Positions 4,610-63,264 of a stretch of 64,000 nt of DNA are shown piece after piece. Below the pieces are notes generated by a model, which was not told the DNA's origin, did no database searches, and saw only the letters and a program-made list of their open reading frames with translations. How positions within the stretch are numbered: position 1 is the stretch's first letter; the number at the start of each line of letters is the position of its first letter. The position numbers were made by a program, and so were the translations under genes. Source of the DNA: Alphaproteobacteria bacterium (GTDB lineage: Bacteria > Pseudomonadota > Alphaproteobacteria > Caulobacterales > Parvularculaceae); contig JAADIQ010000038.1 in the NCBI GenBank assembly GCA_013151255.1, forward strand, positions 1 through 64,000, in the 5' to 3' direction.

Positions 4610-5180
4610 TTCACACCTTGATCAGCGTAATAACTAAGTACAAGCATGCGCCATTATCGCTGCTGCGGTTAACATCTTGTAATTGAACTTGGTTAATCGC
4701 CGAGGTTTTGGTTAGGCCGGTGTAATTGTTCTAAAATTTTATCTAGTTTTCTTTGTGTCTGATATGCGCCGTACACAAATTAACCATGTAACCACAGAAT
4801 GTGGCGGCCGCCGTGAGGGAAAACCATTAGCGCGCCCATCAAATGGCGCCTGGCGAGGCGCATGCTCGACGGTTGTTGTCCGCTAAATTTGTAGACATTG
4901 AGGTTGTTGGCGTGCGCCTGTTTTTATGGGGTTTGCCGCGCCGGGGGGCTAGCCAGACATTTTCAGCGCTGCGCGCGGCTCGGCTGGGTTAACATTGTCG
5001 GTTAGATTGAAATTTTCCGATAATGATAGTGCAAGAAATTCAGAGGCTTAAAGCGCAAGTCATGACCCTTGGGCAGATTCCAGCCGAACCGTCCGGCTTT
5101 AGAAAATATCGAAATTATCAGCCAAAGCATCTGAATCCGTGTTATTAACCATAACCAGAATCTCTTATGGAGGGGTCGTT
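4610..5180. other. Intergenic region, no recognised element
   Basis: About 570 bases separate the divergent TadG-like and LysM genes. It is the longest empty stretch in the window. It holds several AT-rich patches that could serve promoters for both directions, but no convincing -35/-10 pair, hairpin, RNA gene or coding frame could be supported. A GGAGG just before 5181 is the ribosome binding site for the LysM gene. Confidence 0.5.
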
Positions 5181-6281
5181 ATGAGCACTATCGGGACACT
5201 CAACATCGCTGGCTTTGGCGCCGTCGGCGCGGCGTTCTTCATCTTGGCGGCGCCGGCTTCGGCCGGGCGTTGCGGGCACTCCTACGCGGTTGATGCGCCG
5301 ACCACCCTGGTGACGGTGGCGCGCCAGTGCAATGTCAATCTGTCGGCGCTGTATGAGGCCAATCCGGGTGTCGATCCGAGTAATGTCCGGCCGGGCGAAT
5401 ATCTGGCGGTGCCCGATGAGATCACGGGCTCAACGCTATCGGTCGCGGACGCGCCCCTGGCGCAACCGTCCGCGGTTCAGCCTGCGGTAACCGATAGCCA
5501 GGCGCATGGTGTTAGCGGGACGATCATCAATGATGCGGGGCGCGCTGGAATGGGCGGTGATTTTTCCGGAGTGACACAACGCATTAGTTATCGCGATCAG
5601 TGGGGCTCTTCATCCTCAAGGTCGGCCTGGCGGCGCGAAGAGTCGCTTGGCGCGAGACAACACGCCAATTCAGACACGCTTAGCTATCAGCGACTTTCTG
5701 CATTGCGGATTGAAAGCGCCGGATTGCCAACGGCGCCGGCGAGGTTTGCCGGTGCGAATTCGTCTGCGGGCGTACAGCTCATCGAGTGCCAAGTGTTGCG
5801 CAAACGCGACGGCGGTAAAATTCATAAGCTACGGAAAATTATTTCAACGCCTGAAAATACGTTTGTCGAAATCAGTGCGATGAGCGAAGGCGAGGGGTCT
5901 GATTGCAGGTTGATCAGTGCATCCGCGCCGGTTCGGCTTACGCCGGGCGTGCCGGCGGCGCATTATACGACGCCGACTGCCGACACTGGCTATCGCCTTC
6001 CGGATTACTCCAAAATCGGCGACATCGTGGTAACGCCGCGATTGGTGCAGCGGCGTAAGATTTCTCTGCGCGGCGAAATCGTCGACAGCACCAATGGGTG
6101 TTTGTTGCTGAAAACCGACAATGACGTGTTGCGCAGGCTATCGACAACGCAGCCCGCTGACGACCTTCTGGGCAAGGAAGTCACGGTGTGGGGAACAATG
6201 TCGTCAAACGGCGCTTGCGGCGGCGGGGCGTCAATTTTGATCAGCCATGCGGTCTATGCCGAGCGCTGGCCGGCGCGATAG
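5181..6281 (+). CDS. Secreted LysM domain protein
   Basis: The predicted 366-residue exported protein has a signal-peptide-like N-terminus (GAVGAAFFILAAPASAGR). One LysM peptidoglycan-binding domain follows at about residues 35-80 (YAVDAPTTLVTVARQCNVNLSALYEANPG, ending RPGEYLAVP). The middle is low in recognisable features, and the C-terminal third has Cys-containing beta-rich sequence (GCLLLKTDND, VTVWGTMSSNGACGG) that I do not assign to a family. I placed the start at the ATG at 5181 because GGAGG precedes it at good distance and it gives a clean signal peptide. The ORF track start at 5139 would put 14 extra residues before it. It probably acts at the cell wall. Confidence 0.8.
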   Translation: MSTIGTLNIAGFGAVGAAFFILAAPASAGRCGHSYAVDAPTTLVTVARQCNVNLSALYEANPGVDPSNVRPGEYLAVPDEITGSTLSVADAPLAQPSAVQPAVTDSQAHGVSGTIINDAGRAGMGGDFSGVTQRISYRDQWGSSSSRSAWRREESLGARQHANSDTLSYQRLSALRIESAGLPTAPARFAGANSSAGVQLIECQVLRKRDGGKIHKLRKIISTPENTFVEISAMSEGEGSDCRLISASAPVRLTPGVPAAHYTTPTADTGYRLPDYSKIGDIVVTPRLVQRRKISLRGEIVDSTNGCLLLKTDNDVLRRLSTTQPADDLLGKEVTVWGTMSSNGACGGGASILISHAVYAERWPAR

Positions 6282-6302
6282 CAGCTGGTAAGCTGATAGC
6301 CC

Positions 6303-6968
6303 ATGCTGCATCCTGAAGCTGCGCTATCGCCGCGTTTTGCGTGGTTCATGCTCGCGGCGTCGCTGGCGGTATTCCTTTTTCTCAGCGTAACGGCGCCCAG
6401 TGGCGCGTTTGAAGCCGCTGAGCGCAGCTTCCTGTTGGCGCTGCGCAATGGCGACGACCCGGCTTTGCTGAACGGCCCCGGATGGCTGTTATACTTTGTA
6501 CAGAATATTACCGCGCTTGGCGGTTGGCCGGTGTTGACGGTGTTCAGCCTTCTGCTCGCCGGCGCGCTCATTATTCACAAACAATGGTCGTTTCTGTTTG
6601 TCCTCTTGGCCGTGGTGATCGGCGAGACGGTGATAACCGGCATGCTCAAAGATTTTTTCGGCCGTGTGCGTCCGGACTTTCTCCCCCATCTCACAGCAGC
6701 CAGCAGCGAAAGCTTTCCCAGCGGCCATTCGGCAAGTGCGGCGGCGATATATCTCACCTTTGGATTGGCGATTGCGAATGTGCTGAAACAGCGCGCCGCA
6801 CGGCGCTACGCTCTGGGCGCTTCGCTGGTGTTGGTGTTTCTGATTGGCGCCAGCCGGGTTTTTCTCGGCGTCCACTACCCAACCGACGTCATCGCCGGCT
6901 GGTGCGTCGGCGCCGCCTGGGCCAGCGCAGTGTGGCTGGCGGCGTGGCGTCTGAACAACAACGCCTAG
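6303..6968 (+). CDS. PAP2-family membrane phosphatase
   Basis: The 221-residue polytopic membrane protein carries the three PAP2 phosphatase motifs: KDFFGRVRPDF (motif 1, KX6RP), FPSGHSASAA (motif 2, PSGH) and SRVFLGVHYPTDVIAG (motif 3, SRX5HX3D with catalytic His). About five to six hydrophobic helices are visible. The family dephosphorylates lipid phosphates such as phosphatidic acid, phosphatidylglycerol phosphate or undecaprenyl diphosphate; which one cannot be told from sequence. Its 3' end overlaps the arsM 3' end by four bases (convergent genes). Confidence 0.92.
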   Translation: MLHPEAALSPRFAWFMLAASLAVFLFLSVTAPSGAFEAAERSFLLALRNGDDPALLNGPGWLLYFVQNITALGGWPVLTVFSLLLAGALIIHKQWSFLFVLLAVVIGETVITGMLKDFFGRVRPDFLPHLTAASSESFPSGHSASAAAIYLTFGLAIANVLKQRAARRYALGASLVLVFLIGASRVFLGVHYPTDVIAGWCVGAAWASAVWLAAWRLNNNA

Positions 6969-18958: not shown

Positions 18959-21481
18959 ATGGCCGATAGCCCAGAAAATCCTGAAGCGATTTTGCCGCCC
19001 AAATTTGCGGACTGGTTTGCGTCGCGGGGTTGGCGGGCGCGTCCGCACCAGCTTGAGTGTGTCGCCGCTGACCAGGCCGGGCTGTCGCATCTGTTGATTG
19101 CGCCCACTGGCGGCGGCAAGACTTTGGCCGGGTTTTTGCCAAGCCTTGTTGCCCTGGATGGGCGCAAGGCGCCGCGTGAGGGCCGTCTGCACACGCTTTA
19201 TATTTCGCCGTTAAAAGCGCTGGCCGTCGATATTGCCCGCAACTTGCAAACGCCGGTCGAAGAGATGGGCCTCGATATCGCGATTGAGACCCGCACCGGG
19301 GATACGCCGCCGGCGCGGCGTCTGCGCCAGAAACATCAGCCGCCCGATATTTTAATGACCACGCCGGAGAGCCTGTCGCTGCTGCTCGCATCGCCTGATG
19401 CGGCCGGGTATTTCAAAGGCCTGCATCGTGTCATCCTCGATGAGTTGCATGCGCTGATCCCCAACAAGCGCGGGCATTTGCTGTCGCTGGCGCTGGCGCG
19501 GCTGCGCAAGTTGGCGCCGCAAATGCGCATGGCGGGGCTATCGGCCACCGTGCCCGATGCGCGCCCGTTGATTGATTATCTGACGCCGCAAAACACCCCC
19601 GGCGCCGTTTCCGCCAAACTCATTCGCGGCGCTTCCGGCGCCAGGCCGCAGGTCGATGTTCTGGTTTCCGAAGAGCGCATCCCGTGGTCCGGCCATTCCG
19701 GCCGGCATGCGTTCATGGAAGTCTATGCGGCGATCAAAAGCGCCGGGCTGACGCTGGTTTTCGTCAACACCCGCAGCCAGGCCGAGGCGACATTCGCGGC
19801 GCTGTGGCGATTGAACGAAGACAATCTGCCGATCGCGTTGCATCACGGATCGCTTGAAGTTGAACGTCGTCGCAAGGTTGAGGCGGCGATGGTTGCGGGG
19901 CGATTGCGCGCGGTGGTCGCCACATCGACGCTCGATCTCGGCATTGACTGGGGCGATGTTGACCTCGTCATTCAGATGGGCGCGCCGAAAGGCGCCAGCC
20001 GTCTCACCCAGCGCATCGGCAGAGCCAATCACCGCATGAACGAGCCGAGCCGGGCGCTGCTGGTGCCGGCAAACCGCATGGAAGTGCTCGAATGTATAGC
20101 CGCGAAACAGGCGATAGACGAGGGCGCGCTCGATGGCGCCCCGCCGCGCAAAGGAACGCTTGATGTGCTGGCGCAGCATATTCTCGGCATGGCTTGCGCG
20201 GCGCCTTTCGAGCCTGATGCTCTTTATGCGGAGATATGCTCCGCTGCGCCTTACGCCGATCTTACCCGCAAGGACTTTGACGACGCCGTCGAATTCGTCG
20301 CCACCGGCGGCTATGCGTTGAAGCGCTATGACCGCTACCGCCGGATTGTCAAAACCCCGGACGGGCTATACGCCGCGCGCGACGGCCGCGCGGCGCAACA
20401 ATATAAGATGAATGTCGGAACCATCGTCGAGGCGCCGGCGCTGAATGTCCGGCTGGCGAGCGGAAAGGGGCCGAAAAGACCCGGCCGCGAAGGTGGCCCA
20501 AATAATAAGAGCGCGCCTTTGCGCGCGGGACGTAAGCTTGGCACGCTCGAAGAATGGTTCTTCGAAAGCCTGACGCCGGGCGATGCGTTTTACTTTGCTG
20601 GTGAGATTTTGCGGCTGGAACGCATTGAGGGCGGCGACGCGATTGTCTCGCGCACGGTGAGCGAGGCGCCGCGCATTCCAACCTGGGGCGGCAATAAATT
20701 TCCGTGGTCGACTTATTTGGCCGAACGCGTGCGCGCGATGCTGTCTGACCCGGAAAGCTGGAACGCCTATCCGGAGCAGGTGCGCGCCTGGCTCGAAAAA
20801 CAGCGCGAGGTGGCGCGCATTCCCAAACCCGGTGAGCTGCTGGTCGAGACCTTTCCGTATCAGGACAGATATTTTCTTGTCTGCTACCCATTTGACGGAT
20901 GGCTGGCGCACCAGACGTTGGCGATGTTGCTGACGCGCCGGCTGGAGCGGCTTGGCAAGCAGCCGATTGGTTTTGCGCCAACCGAATACGCGTTGTCGAT
21001 ATGGAGCCGTCAGGATATGAGCGATGTTGATATGGCGGCGCTGTTTGACGAGGACATGCTCGGCGATGATCTCGAAAGCTGGCTTGCGGAAGCTGTGTTG
21101 ATGAAACGCACCTTCAGAAATTGCGCGGTGATCGCCGGGCTGATTGAGCGCAAATATCCCGGTCAGGAAAAAACCGGACGACAAATCGCTTTCTCAGCGG
21201 ACCTTATTTACGACGTGTTGCGCGAGCACGAGCCAGACCATCTGTTGATGCGCGCGGCGTGGGAGGATGCCTCGAGCGGATTTCTTGACCTCAAACGCCT
21301 GCAAGCGCTGCTGGCGCGGGTGCAAACCCGCATCGATCACGCTGCGTTGGCGCAGGTCTCGCCGCTGGCGGTGCCGGTGATGCTGGAAATCGGCCGCGAG
21401 AACGTCGCCAAGGACGCCAGCGAGGCGATGTTGAAAACCGCCTCCGCCGATCTCATTGCCGTGGCGATGAGAACGCCGTAA
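18959..21481 (+). CDS. Ligase-associated DNA damage response DEXH-box helicase (Lhr-like)
   Basis: The 840-residue SF2 helicase of the Lhr-like, ligase-associated branch is an ATP-dependent 3'-5' DNA/RNA unwinding enzyme used in repair. Motif I is APTGGGKTLAGF (about 49), motif II DELHAL (DEXH), motif III SATVPD, and the helicase C-terminal motifs are STLDLGIDWGDVDLV and QRIGRANHR. A long C-terminal region (about 430-840) carries the winged-helix and Lhr-core parts. The gene is 10 bases upstream of pdeM, its usual partner; the ligase and exonuclease genes of that cluster are not in the window. Start ATG at 18959 with the MADSPENPE N-terminus. Confidence 0.93.
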   Translation: MADSPENPEAILPPKFADWFASRGWRARPHQLECVAADQAGLSHLLIAPTGGGKTLAGFLPSLVALDGRKAPREGRLHTLYISPLKALAVDIARNLQTPVEEMGLDIAIETRTGDTPPARRLRQKHQPPDILMTTPESLSLLLASPDAAGYFKGLHRVILDELHALIPNKRGHLLSLALARLRKLAPQMRMAGLSATVPDARPLIDYLTPQNTPGAVSAKLIRGASGARPQVDVLVSEERIPWSGHSGRHAFMEVYAAIKSAGLTLVFVNTRSQAEATFAALWRLNEDNLPIALHHGSLEVERRRKVEAAMVAGRLRAVVATSTLDLGIDWGDVDLVIQMGAPKGASRLTQRIGRANHRMNEPSRALLVPANRMEVLECIAAKQAIDEGALDGAPPRKGTLDVLAQHILGMACAAPFEPDALYAEICSAAPYADLTRKDFDDAVEFVATGGYALKRYDRYRRIVKTPDGLYAARDGRAAQQYKMNVGTIVEAPALNVRLASGKGPKRPGREGGPNNKSAPLRAGRKLGTLEEWFFESLTPGDAFYFAGEILRLERIEGGDAIVSRTVSEAPRIPTWGGNKFPWSTYLAERVRAMLSDPESWNAYPEQVRAWLEKQREVARIPKPGELLVETFPYQDRYFLVCYPFDGWLAHQTLAMLLTRRLERLGKQPIGFAPTEYALSIWSRQDMSDVDMAALFDEDMLGDDLESWLAEAVLMKRTFRNCAVIAGLIERKYPGQEKTGRQIAFSADLIYDVLREHEPDHLLMRAAWEDASSGFLDLKRLQALLARVQTRIDHAALAQVSPLAVPVMLEIGRENVAKDASEAMLKTASADLIAVAMRTP

Positions 21482-22243: not shown

Positions 22244-22410
22244 CCCCCTCCGTCCCTTCGGGACACCTCCCCCGTAAACGGGGGAGGAATAGGTTGAGCT
22301 TGAGGCAAGCTCTTTCTTCCCCCCGCCGACCGCGAAGGCGGTCGAATCATAATCTGCGCGCATTCGCGCGCGGGCGGGGGAAGTGGCCGCGAAGCGGTCG
22401 AAGGGGGTCT
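22244..22410. repeat. Intergenic palindromic repeat family A, copy 1 (with nested element D)
   Basis: It starts CCCCCTCCGTC and ends AAGGGGGTCT. Inside are CCTCCCCCGTAAACGGGGGAGG and a second CTTCCCCC / GGGGGAAG hairpin whose loop is replaced by a roughly 50-base element (family D). The same framework recurs at 49935-50057. It fills most of the gap between pdeM and the flavin-protein gene. Confidence 0.85.
22326..22374 (+). repeat. Nested mini-element family D, copy 1
   Basis: CCGACCGCGAAGGCGGTCG followed by a CGCGCATTCGCGCGCG hairpin sits in the loop of repeat A copy 1. Its reverse complement, about 90% identical by eye, is inside repeat C copy 2 at 63109-63158. Repeat A copy 2 has only GTTTA in this place. 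Confidence 0.7.
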
Positions 22411-23140: not shown

Positions 23141-23218
23141 GAGCCCTACTGTGAAGGCGCTCGTACTAGAGCATTACGCGTTCTAACGAAGCCAGCTAAC
23201 CGCTATACATAAACCTCA

Positions 23219-23285
23219 CTCATCCCGGCGAAAGCCGGGATCCATATGAACCTGCGGTCTGGATCCCGGCTTTCGCCGGGATGAG
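23219..23285. repeat. Intergenic inverted repeat family B, copy 1
   Basis: The 25-base arms are perfect inverted copies (CTCATCCCGGCGAAAGCCGG... and its complement at 23261-23285) separated by 17 bases. A diverged copy lies at 61043-61108. It sits between the flavin protein and the convergent metallophosphoesterase gene, so it may also end transcripts. Confidence 0.88.
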
Positions 23286-23313
23286 CGGTGTGAGAGATGC
23301 GATCCATGTCATG

Positions 23314-49934: not shown

Positions 49935-50057
49935 CCCCCTCCGTCAGCTTCGCTGACACCTCCCCCGTAAACGGGGGAGGGATTAGGTTGCGCTTGCGGT
50001 GAGGGTAATTCTTCCCCCGTTTACGGGGGAAGTGGCCCGAAGGGCCGATAGGGGTCT
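49935..50057. repeat. Intergenic palindromic repeat family A, copy 2
   Basis: It matches copy 1 at 22244-22410: CCCCCTCCGTC, CACCTCCCCCGTAAACGGG, CTTCCCCCGTTTACGGGG, ATAGGGGTCT. It occupies most of the 320-base gap between the permease and rnd genes. It lacks the nested element D. Confidence 0.85.
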
Positions 50058-54742: not shown

Positions 54743-54893
54743 CGTCATCCCGTGCGCAATGCGGCATGAAATGCCGCTTTGCAGGCCTCGACGATAGTTG
54801 GGGCGGATCGCTAACGGCAAACTCCAACCCGATGCGGGAGATCCCGGACCAGCGAAGCAGCATTTCATGCTGCATCGCATCCGGGATGACGGC
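54743..54893. repeat. Intergenic repeat family C, copy 1
   Basis: It begins CGTCATCCCGTG and ends CATCCGGGATGACGGC, with GATCCCGGACCAGCGAAGCA before a TTTCATGCTGCATCG hairpin. The ends are complementary (GTCATCCCG / CGGGATGAC). A related copy is at 63088-63264. It fills the gap between the M14 gene and the acyltransferase gene; the rest of 54548-54923 shows nothing. Confidence 0.85.
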
Positions 54894-59634: not shown

Positions 59635-60993
59635 ATGGTCTTGGGAGAAAAACGATATTCAAGCGTAGCGGTCGCCCTGCATTGGGCGATTGCGCTTTTA
59701 ATCCTGACACAGATTGCCAGCGGGCTGTATATGGAAGGATTGCCGAATTCATCATCGGTGAAGTTCGACCTCTATCAGCTCCACAAGTCCTTTGGCCTGT
59801 CTATCTTTGGGCTGACCCTCATTCGGCTCGGCTGGCGGCTCGCCCATAAGCCGCCGGCGCTGCCGGGCGCTATGCCCGGATGGCAAAAGCTGATTGCGCG
59901 CCTTACCCATTGGGCGTTTTACGCGCTGATGCTGATAACGCCGCTGGCGGGGCTGGCGATTGTGTCGGTCTCGCCGTTGAATGTGACGACGTTTTGGTTT
60001 GGCCTGGTCGAAGTCCCGCATCTGCCGTTTTTCAATGGCGTTGCTGATCGCGCCGCAGCTGCGGAAGCGTTTGTGGAGGTGCATGAGTATTTAGCATTTT
60101 CAATTTTGTTTTTGTTTGTGCTCCATGTTGGCGCCGCGCTAAAGCACGGCTTTGTCAATCGCGACGGCGTGTTGCGCAGCATGGCGCCGCGCGTTGTTGC
60201 ACTGATTGGCGTCGCCCTCATTTTCGGCGTGCTGGGGCTGGCGGCTTTTGCATACCTACAAAAGGGTGGGGACGTAGAACGCGATAGCGTCGCTCCGCTT
60301 GATGTTGTGTTGCCAGAGACAACACCGGCCGCCGCTGTGGCCGTTGAACCGGCGCCACTGCCAGCGACCGAGCCCGCGCCGATGAATACCGACAGTGTTG
60401 CGCCTGAAGCTGTCACAACCGCCGAGCCCGAAGCCGAAACGGCTATAGAACCGGCGTCGCCCGCAGAGGCGGTTGCCTCAATTGCGCCGCCGCCCGTTTG
60501 GACGGTTGATAACGCCGCCAGCACGTTGCGGTTTATCGGCGAGGAAGGCGGCGCGCAGTTTGAGGGGCGGTTTTCCGAATTTACCGCGCAGATTGTGTTC
60601 GATCCGGACAATCTTGGCGCCTCGTCAATCCGTGTTGACGTCAAACCCGCCTCCGCCGGCTCTGGCAATCCGTTTCGCGATGACACGATGAAGGACCGCG
60701 CGTGGTTCGATGTCAAAAAACATGAGGGCGCGCAGTTCACGTCAAACACTATCCGCAAAACTGGCGCGAACGCCTATGAGGCCGACGGAACGCTGACCAT
60801 CAAGGACTTCTCCCACGACGTCACGCTGGTCTTTACGCTGGATATTGACGGCGACCGCGCACACGCTGCCGGCGGCGCGGATCTCATCCGCACCGATTAC
60901 GGCCTCGGCATGGGCGCCTCATGGCTGGAGAGCGAAAAGGTCGCCTTGGCGGTTCGCGTGGCATTTGAAATTAATGCCGTGCGCGCTGACTAG
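59635..60993 (+). CDS. Cytochrome b561 fused to a YceI domain
   Basis: The 452-residue two-domain protein is made of a diheme cytochrome b561-type membrane domain (about 5-210, four to five helices) with His ligands in VALHWAIALLIL, LYQLHKSFGL and FVLHVGAALKHGFVNRDG. A Pro/Ala/Glu-rich linker of about 70 residues follows, and then a YceI domain (about 280-452: VWTVDNAASTLRFIGEEGGAQFEGRFSEF ... DGTLTIKDFSHDVTLVFTLD). It probably moves electrons across the inner membrane to a quinone or lipid carrier bound by YceI. In E. coli yceJ and yceI are separate neighbours; here they are joined, and a second YceI gene precedes it. TTG 59617 is an alternative start. Confidence 0.93.
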   Translation: MVLGEKRYSSVAVALHWAIALLILTQIASGLYMEGLPNSSSVKFDLYQLHKSFGLSIFGLTLIRLGWRLAHKPPALPGAMPGWQKLIARLTHWAFYALMLITPLAGLAIVSVSPLNVTTFWFGLVEVPHLPFFNGVADRAAAAEAFVEVHEYLAFSILFLFVLHVGAALKHGFVNRDGVLRSMAPRVVALIGVALIFGVLGLAAFAYLQKGGDVERDSVAPLDVVLPETTPAAAVAVEPAPLPATEPAPMNTDSVAPEAVTTAEPEAETAIEPASPAEAVASIAPPPVWTVDNAASTLRFIGEEGGAQFEGRFSEFTAQIVFDPDNLGASSIRVDVKPASAGSGNPFRDDTMKDRAWFDVKKHEGAQFTSNTIRKTGANAYEADGTLTIKDFSHDVTLVFTLDIDGDRAHAAGGADLIRTDYGLGMGASWLESEKVALAVRVAFEINAVRAD

Positions 60994-61042
60994 AACACTT
61001 CGTGTTCAAACGAACCTCACCAGCCACGACATTTAAACACCG

Positions 61043-61108
61043 CTCATCCCGGCAAAAGCCGGGATCCAACACTGACATGGACTAGATTCCGGCTTTCGCC
61101 GGAATGAG
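61043..61108. repeat. Intergenic inverted repeat family B, copy 2
   Basis: It matches copy 1 at 23219-23285: CTCATCCCGGCAAAAGCCGG... and CCGGCTTTCGCCGGAATGAG, with a few mismatches between arms. It lies between the convergent b561-YceI and cobT genes, where it may also end transcripts. Confidence 0.85.
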
Positions 61109-61149
61109 CGGGGATATGGGTATGCGATACATCTTCATCGCCCAGCGCT

Positions 61150-63087: not shown

Positions 63088-63264
63088 CGTCATCCCGTGT
63101 GCTGCGCGGCCCCGCGCGCGAATGCGCGCAAACCATGATGCGACCGCCTTCGCGGTCGGGGTGACGCGCTGCTAGCACGGGATCTCGTGCGGCAGGTTCT
63201 CTAACCGATAGCGATCCCGGACCAGCGCAGCAGTGTTTCACACCGCAGCGCATCCGGGATGACG
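63088..63264. repeat. Intergenic repeat family C, copy 2 (with nested element D)
   Basis: The ends CGTCATCCCGTG and CATCCGGGATGACGGC and the inner GATCCCGGACCAGCGCAGCA match copy 1 at 54743-54893. It is 26 bases longer because a roughly 50-base element (family D) lies inside. It fills the gap between cobT and the M13 gene. Confidence 0.82.
63109..63158 (-). repeat. Nested mini-element family D, copy 2
   Basis: CCGCGCGCGAATGCGCGC and CGACCGCCTTCGCGGTCGG are the reverse complement of the element at 22326-22374, with a few changes in the middle (CAAACCATGATG against CAGATTATGATT). It is absent from repeat C copy 1. Confidence 0.7.

What the first reader, a model, noticed from the sequence alone, without database searches (positions are those of the whole stretch)
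22326..22374. Roughly 50-bp hairpin element nested in opposite orientations inside two different repeat families
The element in the loop of repeat A copy 1 appears reverse-complemented inside repeat C copy 2 at 63109-63158, while the second copies of A and C lack it. That gives two independent filled/empty comparisons within one window, which is good evidence that the element moved. It has two internal palindromes and no coding capacity.
Basis: seen in the sequence. Interest (0 to 1): 0.62.

Follow-up and report, generated by a model that had tools for sequence, protein, structure and literature searches.

The report
Mobile 45-bp double-hairpin DNA element
A 45-50-base double-hairpin sequence with no gene of its own has copied itself around the genomes of one group of marine bacteria, landing in the loops of other repeats and, exactly in frame, inside working genes, without any of the enzyme families tested that could explain its movement.

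Summary
The element (22325-22374 +; 63111-63160 -) is a 50-nt double hairpin with a fixed 44-nt core: CCC-GACCGC(gaag)GCGGTC-12 nt linker-GCGCGC(mttc)GCGCGC-GGG. Repeat copies A2 and C1 lack it. Equivalent 45-bp in-frame insertions sit in pcrA/uvrD of a one-contig relative genome and in a small membrane-protein gene of a third. The orthologue of site A in the closest relative has the host repeat without the element. There are 28 loci in this genome, up to about 100 model matches in relatives, many in tandem arrays of 45/46-bp units. The family is nearly confined to one genus (Hyphococcus/"Marinicaulis", Parvularculaceae). Sites show no duplication over 2 bp; in host hairpins the element replaces the loop. 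No Y1/RAYT, IS110 or reverse-transcriptase gene was detected in this genome or in a complete element-rich relative. Best reading: a new REP/RPE-like selfish palindromic element, possibly spread by microhomology-guided template switching at hairpins. Mobility is well supported; the mechanism is inferred. Kindred elements (Rickettsia palindromic elements, CGTC REPs, mitochondrial double-hairpin elements) are known.

The parts
22325..22374 (+). element copy 1 (the finding), in the loop of the second hairpin of repeat A
   Evidence: DNA fold -27.1 kcal/mol, z -4.8 with host stem
63111..63160 (-). element copy 2, in the loop of the first hairpin of repeat C copy 2
18959..21481 (+). Lhr-type DEAD/DEAH helicase gene (DEAD, Helicase_C, WH_Lhr, DEAD_assoc) carrying element copy 3 at about residues 508-523, within the WH_Lhr match
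22244..22408 (.). host repeat A copy 1 (two GC-rich hairpins), filled
49935..50055 (.). repeat A copy 2, inverted relative to copy 1, empty loop CCCCCGTTTACGGGGG
63088..63264 (.). repeat C copy 2 (CGTC...GACG-bounded pair of palindromes, REP-dimer-like), filled
54743..54891 (.). repeat C copy 1 (CGTC...GACG), empty
23157..23288 (.). repeat B copy (CATCCCGGCGAAAGCCGGGATCCAG hairpins), empty here; host of the element elsewhere in this genome
60981..61111 (.). second repeat B copy in the window, empty

Best explanation
It is a genus-specific, non-coding, selfish palindromic element: a 44-nt core of two 6-bp hairpins joined by a 12-13-nt linker, inside a CCC...GGG clamp, that multiplies within lineages. 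Shown: dispersed copies, orthologous empty sites, both orientations in host repeats, exact 45-bp in-frame insertions in genes, tandem arrays of 45/46-bp units, no target duplication over 2 bp, loop replacement in host hairpins, and no detected Y1, IS110 or reverse-transcriptase gene in element-rich G000 and G014. Inferred: copies are made during replication or repair, when a single-stranded element folds into its clamped double hairpin and the nascent strand switches template at short G/C-rich homology (element 3' end GCGCGGG or CGGG against the target; CC/GG stem bases of host hairpins). This would swap a host loop for the element, add 45 bp at a CCGGG or GCGCGGG site, or create a tandem copy. 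Copies in essential genes survive because 45 bp is a multiple of three and the frame used is free of stops. My confidence is about 0.9 for a mobile palindromic family and about 0.4 for the transposase-free mechanism; the number below is for the whole statement.
For: 28 loci in G000. Presence in nearly all congeners and near-absence elsewhere. Exact 45-bp in-frame insertions with many empty orthologues: helicase, pcrA/uvrD in a one-contig genome, small membrane-protein gene. A four-unit 45-bp in-frame array in a nuclease-like ORF. Site A empty in G007. Hosts A, B, C, D and E plus unique sites, with both orientations in A and B. Loop replacement: CCCCC-GTTTAC-GGGGG and CCCGGC-TTTC-GCCGGG empties. 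Junction homology 1-2 bp, with targets reading CCGGG or GCGCGGG. Linkers more alike within than between genomes, 0.36 against 0.44, 0 of 500 permutations. No PF01797, PF01548 or PF00078 match in G000 or G014.
Against: No movement has been observed. The enzyme may be of an untested family, lost after the spread, or in the missing 8% of this MAG. The 3-nt-loop subtype occurs mostly in B hosts, so many filled hosts are descendants of a few composite events. Loop replacement is inferred from paralogous empties except at site A, where the host repeat is also flipped relative to G007. The microhomology is too short to exceed chance in three junctions. The flank-stem enrichment is modest overall (20% against 7% with a stem score of at least 7) and absent for host D.
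Confidence: 0.5

Rival explanations
1. A transposase of a family not tested here (for example an IS resident in the genus) moves the element in trans as a MITE; the double hairpin is the recognised end pair.
For: Element ends are complementary (CCCG...CGGG) and copy numbers vary strongly between species; REPs are known IS targets (PMC1525189).
Against: No target duplication over 2 bp at three in-gene sites; no longer terminal inverted repeat than the clamp; tandem arrays and loop replacement are not typical DDE outcomes.
Confidence: 0.2
2. A REP-like element mobilised by a Y1 tyrosine transposase (RAYT/IS200-IS605 family), which leaves no target duplication.
For: Hairpins and absence of target duplication fit; Y1 domains exist in 9 of 28 genus genomes.
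Against: No match in G000 or in 100%-complete G014 with 49 model matches; G037, with about 40, has only a marginal hit. No GTAG tag and no conserved tetranucleotide at the left junction.
Confidence: 0.1
3. The element does not move by itself: it is a loop module of the host repeats A-D, which spread as composites by their own mobility, recombination or gene conversion.
For: Composite insertions occur (rsmB-like gene of G010 with B+element; D+element in OFTM294), and the 3-nt-loop subtype occurs mostly in B hosts.
Against: Bare element insertions in unique coding DNA without any host repeat, and the same element in five unrelated hosts in both orientations.
Confidence: 0.1
4. A functional RNA or terminator-like element retained for regulation.
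For: Stems are well conserved with a few compensatory changes (GATCGC/GCGATC, GGCCGC/GCGGCC, GCGCCC/GGGCGC); strong fold at site A.
Against: Lineage-specific, in both orientations, in genes and repeats; no Rfam match at E <= 1 in the one stretch searched; stem conservation is inflated because many copies were fetched with an exact pattern.
Confidence: 0.05

Closest known systems
Rickettsia palindromic elements (RPE)
   Same: Palindromic, dispersed, alphaproteobacterial, inserted in frame in unrelated protein genes (PMC10969869, PMC3733652).
   Different: RPEs about 150 bp (review); this one adds 45 bp, has two hairpins with a clamp, forms tandem arrays, occurs in free-living marine bacteria and nests in other repeats. 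No RPE sequence was compared here.
CGTC-tagged REPs (dRS3, RPE-4, RPE-6)
   Same: Short palindromes, alphaproteobacterial bias, no dedicated transposase, in frame in repair genes including UvrD helicases (PMC3733652). Repeat C here has CGTC...GACG ends.
   Different: The element has no CGTC tag and is a double hairpin; it inserts into such REP-like repeats.
REP/REPIN with RAYT
   Same: Small hairpin repeats amplified per lineage.
   Different: No GTAG tag; no RAYT detected in this genome or in G014.
Mitochondrial double-hairpin elements (Allomyces) and yeast GC clusters
   Same: Tens of bases, GC-rich hairpins, mobile, in genes and spacers; lack of flanking duplication reported for Allomyces, tandem arrays for yeast (PMC2800124, PMC4478555).
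   Different: Bacterial chromosome; in frame in genes; no sequence relation tested.
A. variabilis GTAG-15 dimers inside long palindromes
   Same: A palindromic repeat nested within another palindrome (PMC3733652).
   Different: One host family there; at least five hosts here.

Membership tests
REP with RAYT (REPIN) | GTAG tag next to the hairpin | tested here: not met
   no GTAG in the consensus or as a shared flank of the listed copies
REP with RAYT (REPIN) | RAYT/Y1 transposase in the genome | tested here: not met
   no PF01797 match in G000 or G014; G000 is 92% complete
CGTC-tagged REP | unpaired CGTC tag at one end | tested here: not met
   absent from the element consensus; present on host repeat C
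Rickettsia palindromic elements | palindromic repeat inserted in frame in unrelated genes | tested here: met
   Lhr, PcrA, small membrane protein, nuclease-like ORF array
Rickettsia palindromic elements | sequence homology to an RPE family | not tested
   no RPE sequences were compared
MITE of a DDE transposon | target-site duplication | tested here: not met
   at most 1-2 bp at three reconstructed in-gene sites
MITE of a DDE transposon | long terminal inverted repeats shared with an IS | tested here: inconclusive
   only a 3-4 bp clamp (CCC...GGG); no IS ends were compared
Mitochondrial-type double-hairpin element | two short GC hairpins, mobile, no target duplication | tested here: met
   architecture and junctions only; this is likeness, not descent

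The most novel reading that the evidence does not exclude
A bacterial DNA element that spreads without any dedicated enzyme: a clamped double hairpin copied by host replication/repair template switching, which swaps the loops of other palindromes for itself and adds 45-bp in-frame peptides to essential genes.
Probability: 0.35. Interest if true: 0.75.

Novelty: new variant of a known kind. Interest (0 to 1): 0.55.

Why it matters
How transposase-less palindromic repeats (CGTC REPs, RPEs, mitochondrial double-hairpin elements) move is an open question. This family is small, apparently young, has clean filled/empty orthologues in several species of a genus with cultured members, and is abundant in genomes lacking the usual candidate enzymes, so the transposase-free hypothesis becomes directly testable. 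It also shows insertion of a fixed-length 15-residue peptide into DNA-repair-type helicases.

Tried and rejected
RAYT/Y1 as the mover, IS110 and reverse transcriptase: not detected in this genome or in G014. Assembly artefact: rejected, since the element is in a one-contig genome (G004) and in the cultured Marinicaulis flavus SY-3-19 record. Rfam family: no match in the stretch searched. Covariation: only a handful of compensatory pairs, and the sample is biased by the exact-pattern scan. Alignment A2 mixes both strands and was not used.

Full report
OBSERVATION. Aligned copies give a 50-nt consensus: a CCC...GGG clamp, hairpin 1 GACCGC-GAAG-GCGGTC, a 12-nt AT-richer linker, and hairpin 2 GCGCGC-MTTC-GCGCGC. 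The covariance model R1 finds exactly three strong copies in the window, the third at 20480-20529. Repeat copies A2 (49935-50055) and C1 (54743-54891) are empty.

ABUNDANCE AND RANGE. In the window's own genome (G000, 3.12 Mb, 131 contigs, 92% complete) there are 28 loci (counts in the R1 tables include reverse-strand matches, because the element is nearly its own reverse complement, so raw match numbers overstate copies). Sixteen of 17 congeners searched have matches (1 to 108 matches, none in G002). In a draw of 150 genomes of the order, hits occur in the genus and in three genomes of two other genera of the same family, none in other families. A pattern scan of public genomes returned Marinicaulis/Parvularculaceae records almost only, including cultured Marinicaulis flavus SY-3-19, which NCBI now calls Hyphococcus luteus. 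Single hits on contigs labelled Opitutales and Deltaproteobacteria come from the same MAG series and are probably misbinned.

HOSTS. Copies sit in at least five unrelated repeat contexts (A: CCCCCGTTTACGGGGG hairpins; B: CCCGGCTTTCGCCGGG hairpins; C: CGTC-bounded palindrome pairs; D: GGGCGAAAAAGTGGAAACCGGTTTTTCG...; E: GCGCTTATGCGC...) and in unique DNA. Repeat A holds the element in either of its two hairpins and in both orientations, C in either hairpin, B in both orientations, so repeated independent entry is needed. On the other side, composites also travel: B plus element in an rsmB-like gene of G010 and D plus element in OFTM294, and the 3-nt-loop subtype is mostly B-associated. In A and B the loop of the empty hairpin is missing from the filled one.

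FILLED AND EMPTY ORTHOLOGUES. The window copy 3 is the cleanest case. The Lhr-type helicase gene 18959-21481 carries 45 extra bases, in frame, that are absent from 14 congeneric orthologues, including G007 at about 92-95% protein identity. In the one-contig genome G004, pcrA/uvrD (named from its sequence, no family search run) carries 45 in-frame bases absent from 20 relatives. In G005 a small membrane protein (DUF6460-like, from memory) carries the same kind of insert, GREGGQSMISAHSRA. A nuclease-like ORF in G000 carries four 45-bp units in frame. At site A itself, closest relative G007 has repeat A at the same place, flipped, with an empty loop; other relatives whose sequence could be read there lack repeat A altogether. 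Reconstructed empty sites show 1-2 bp of junction homology and targets CCGGG or GCGCGGG that match the element's 3' end. So there is no target duplication longer than 2 bp.

DYNAMICS. Linkers are more alike within than between genomes (0.36 against 0.44 distance, 0 of 500 label permutations as low), and the 13-nt linker marks G017 and OFTM294. Nineteen array loci were seen among the fetched DNA, with 45- or 46-bp units (a few may be the same array seen at contig ends).

WHAT MOVES IT. No PF01797 (Y1/RAYT), PF01548 (IS110) or PF00078 (reverse transcriptase) match was found in G000 or in 100%-complete G014. G037, about 40 matches, has only a marginal Y1 hit. Absence in a 92%-complete MAG is weaker evidence than absence in G014. 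I infer copying by template switching at folded hairpins, because it accounts together for loop replacement, lack of duplications, G/C-rich junction homology and arrays; it is not demonstrated.

COMPARISON. Palindromic repeats in frame in genes, repair helicases included, and lacking a dedicated transposase are known: RPEs and CGTC REPs (PMC10969869, PMC3733652). Mobile double-hairpin elements without flanking duplications are known from Allomyces mitochondria, and mobile GC clusters from yeast mitochondria (PMC2800124, PMC4478555). A search for papers on such repeats in Parvularculaceae found none on point. I therefore rate this a new variant of a known kind.

LIMITS. The host-repeat counts are ascertainment-biased. 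The pre-insertion sequence of each gene is inferred from relatives.

Noticed in passing
window 22244-22408 versus L061 around 4795-4840: Repeat A at the same intergenic site is in opposite orientation in the closest relative, as if the repeat had flipped between its inverted arms.
   Followed up: partly
L027 1412-1624 (G000:C56): A 2.4-unit array separates a diverged stub of the era gene start from a complete second era start, as if the interrupted gene had been replaced by a duplicate or a transferred copy.
   Followed up: partly
window 54743-54891 versus L128 about 6031-6480: The same intergenic site holds an empty repeat C in this genome and a repeat A with the element in OFTM183: spacers seem to be shared landing sites for several repeat families.
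   Followed up: partly
L087 12654-14144: rsmB-like gene of G010 contains a composite repeat B plus element in frame; G007 lacks it.
   Followed up: partly
L177 1-518: Element in an RHS-type gene of OFTM310 where the reading frame changes across the insertion: an apparent out-of-frame case.
   Followed up: no
L111 4573-4621; L118 1108-1155: Element on contigs labelled Opitutales (OFTM35) and Deltaproteobacteria (OFTM47), probably misbinned Marinicaulis contigs.
   Followed up: no
window 23157-23288 and 60981-61111: Repeat B pairs (hairpin CATCCCGGCGAAAGCCGGGATCCAG) resemble CGTC-1/dRS3-type REPs but with a GCTC tag.
   Followed up: no
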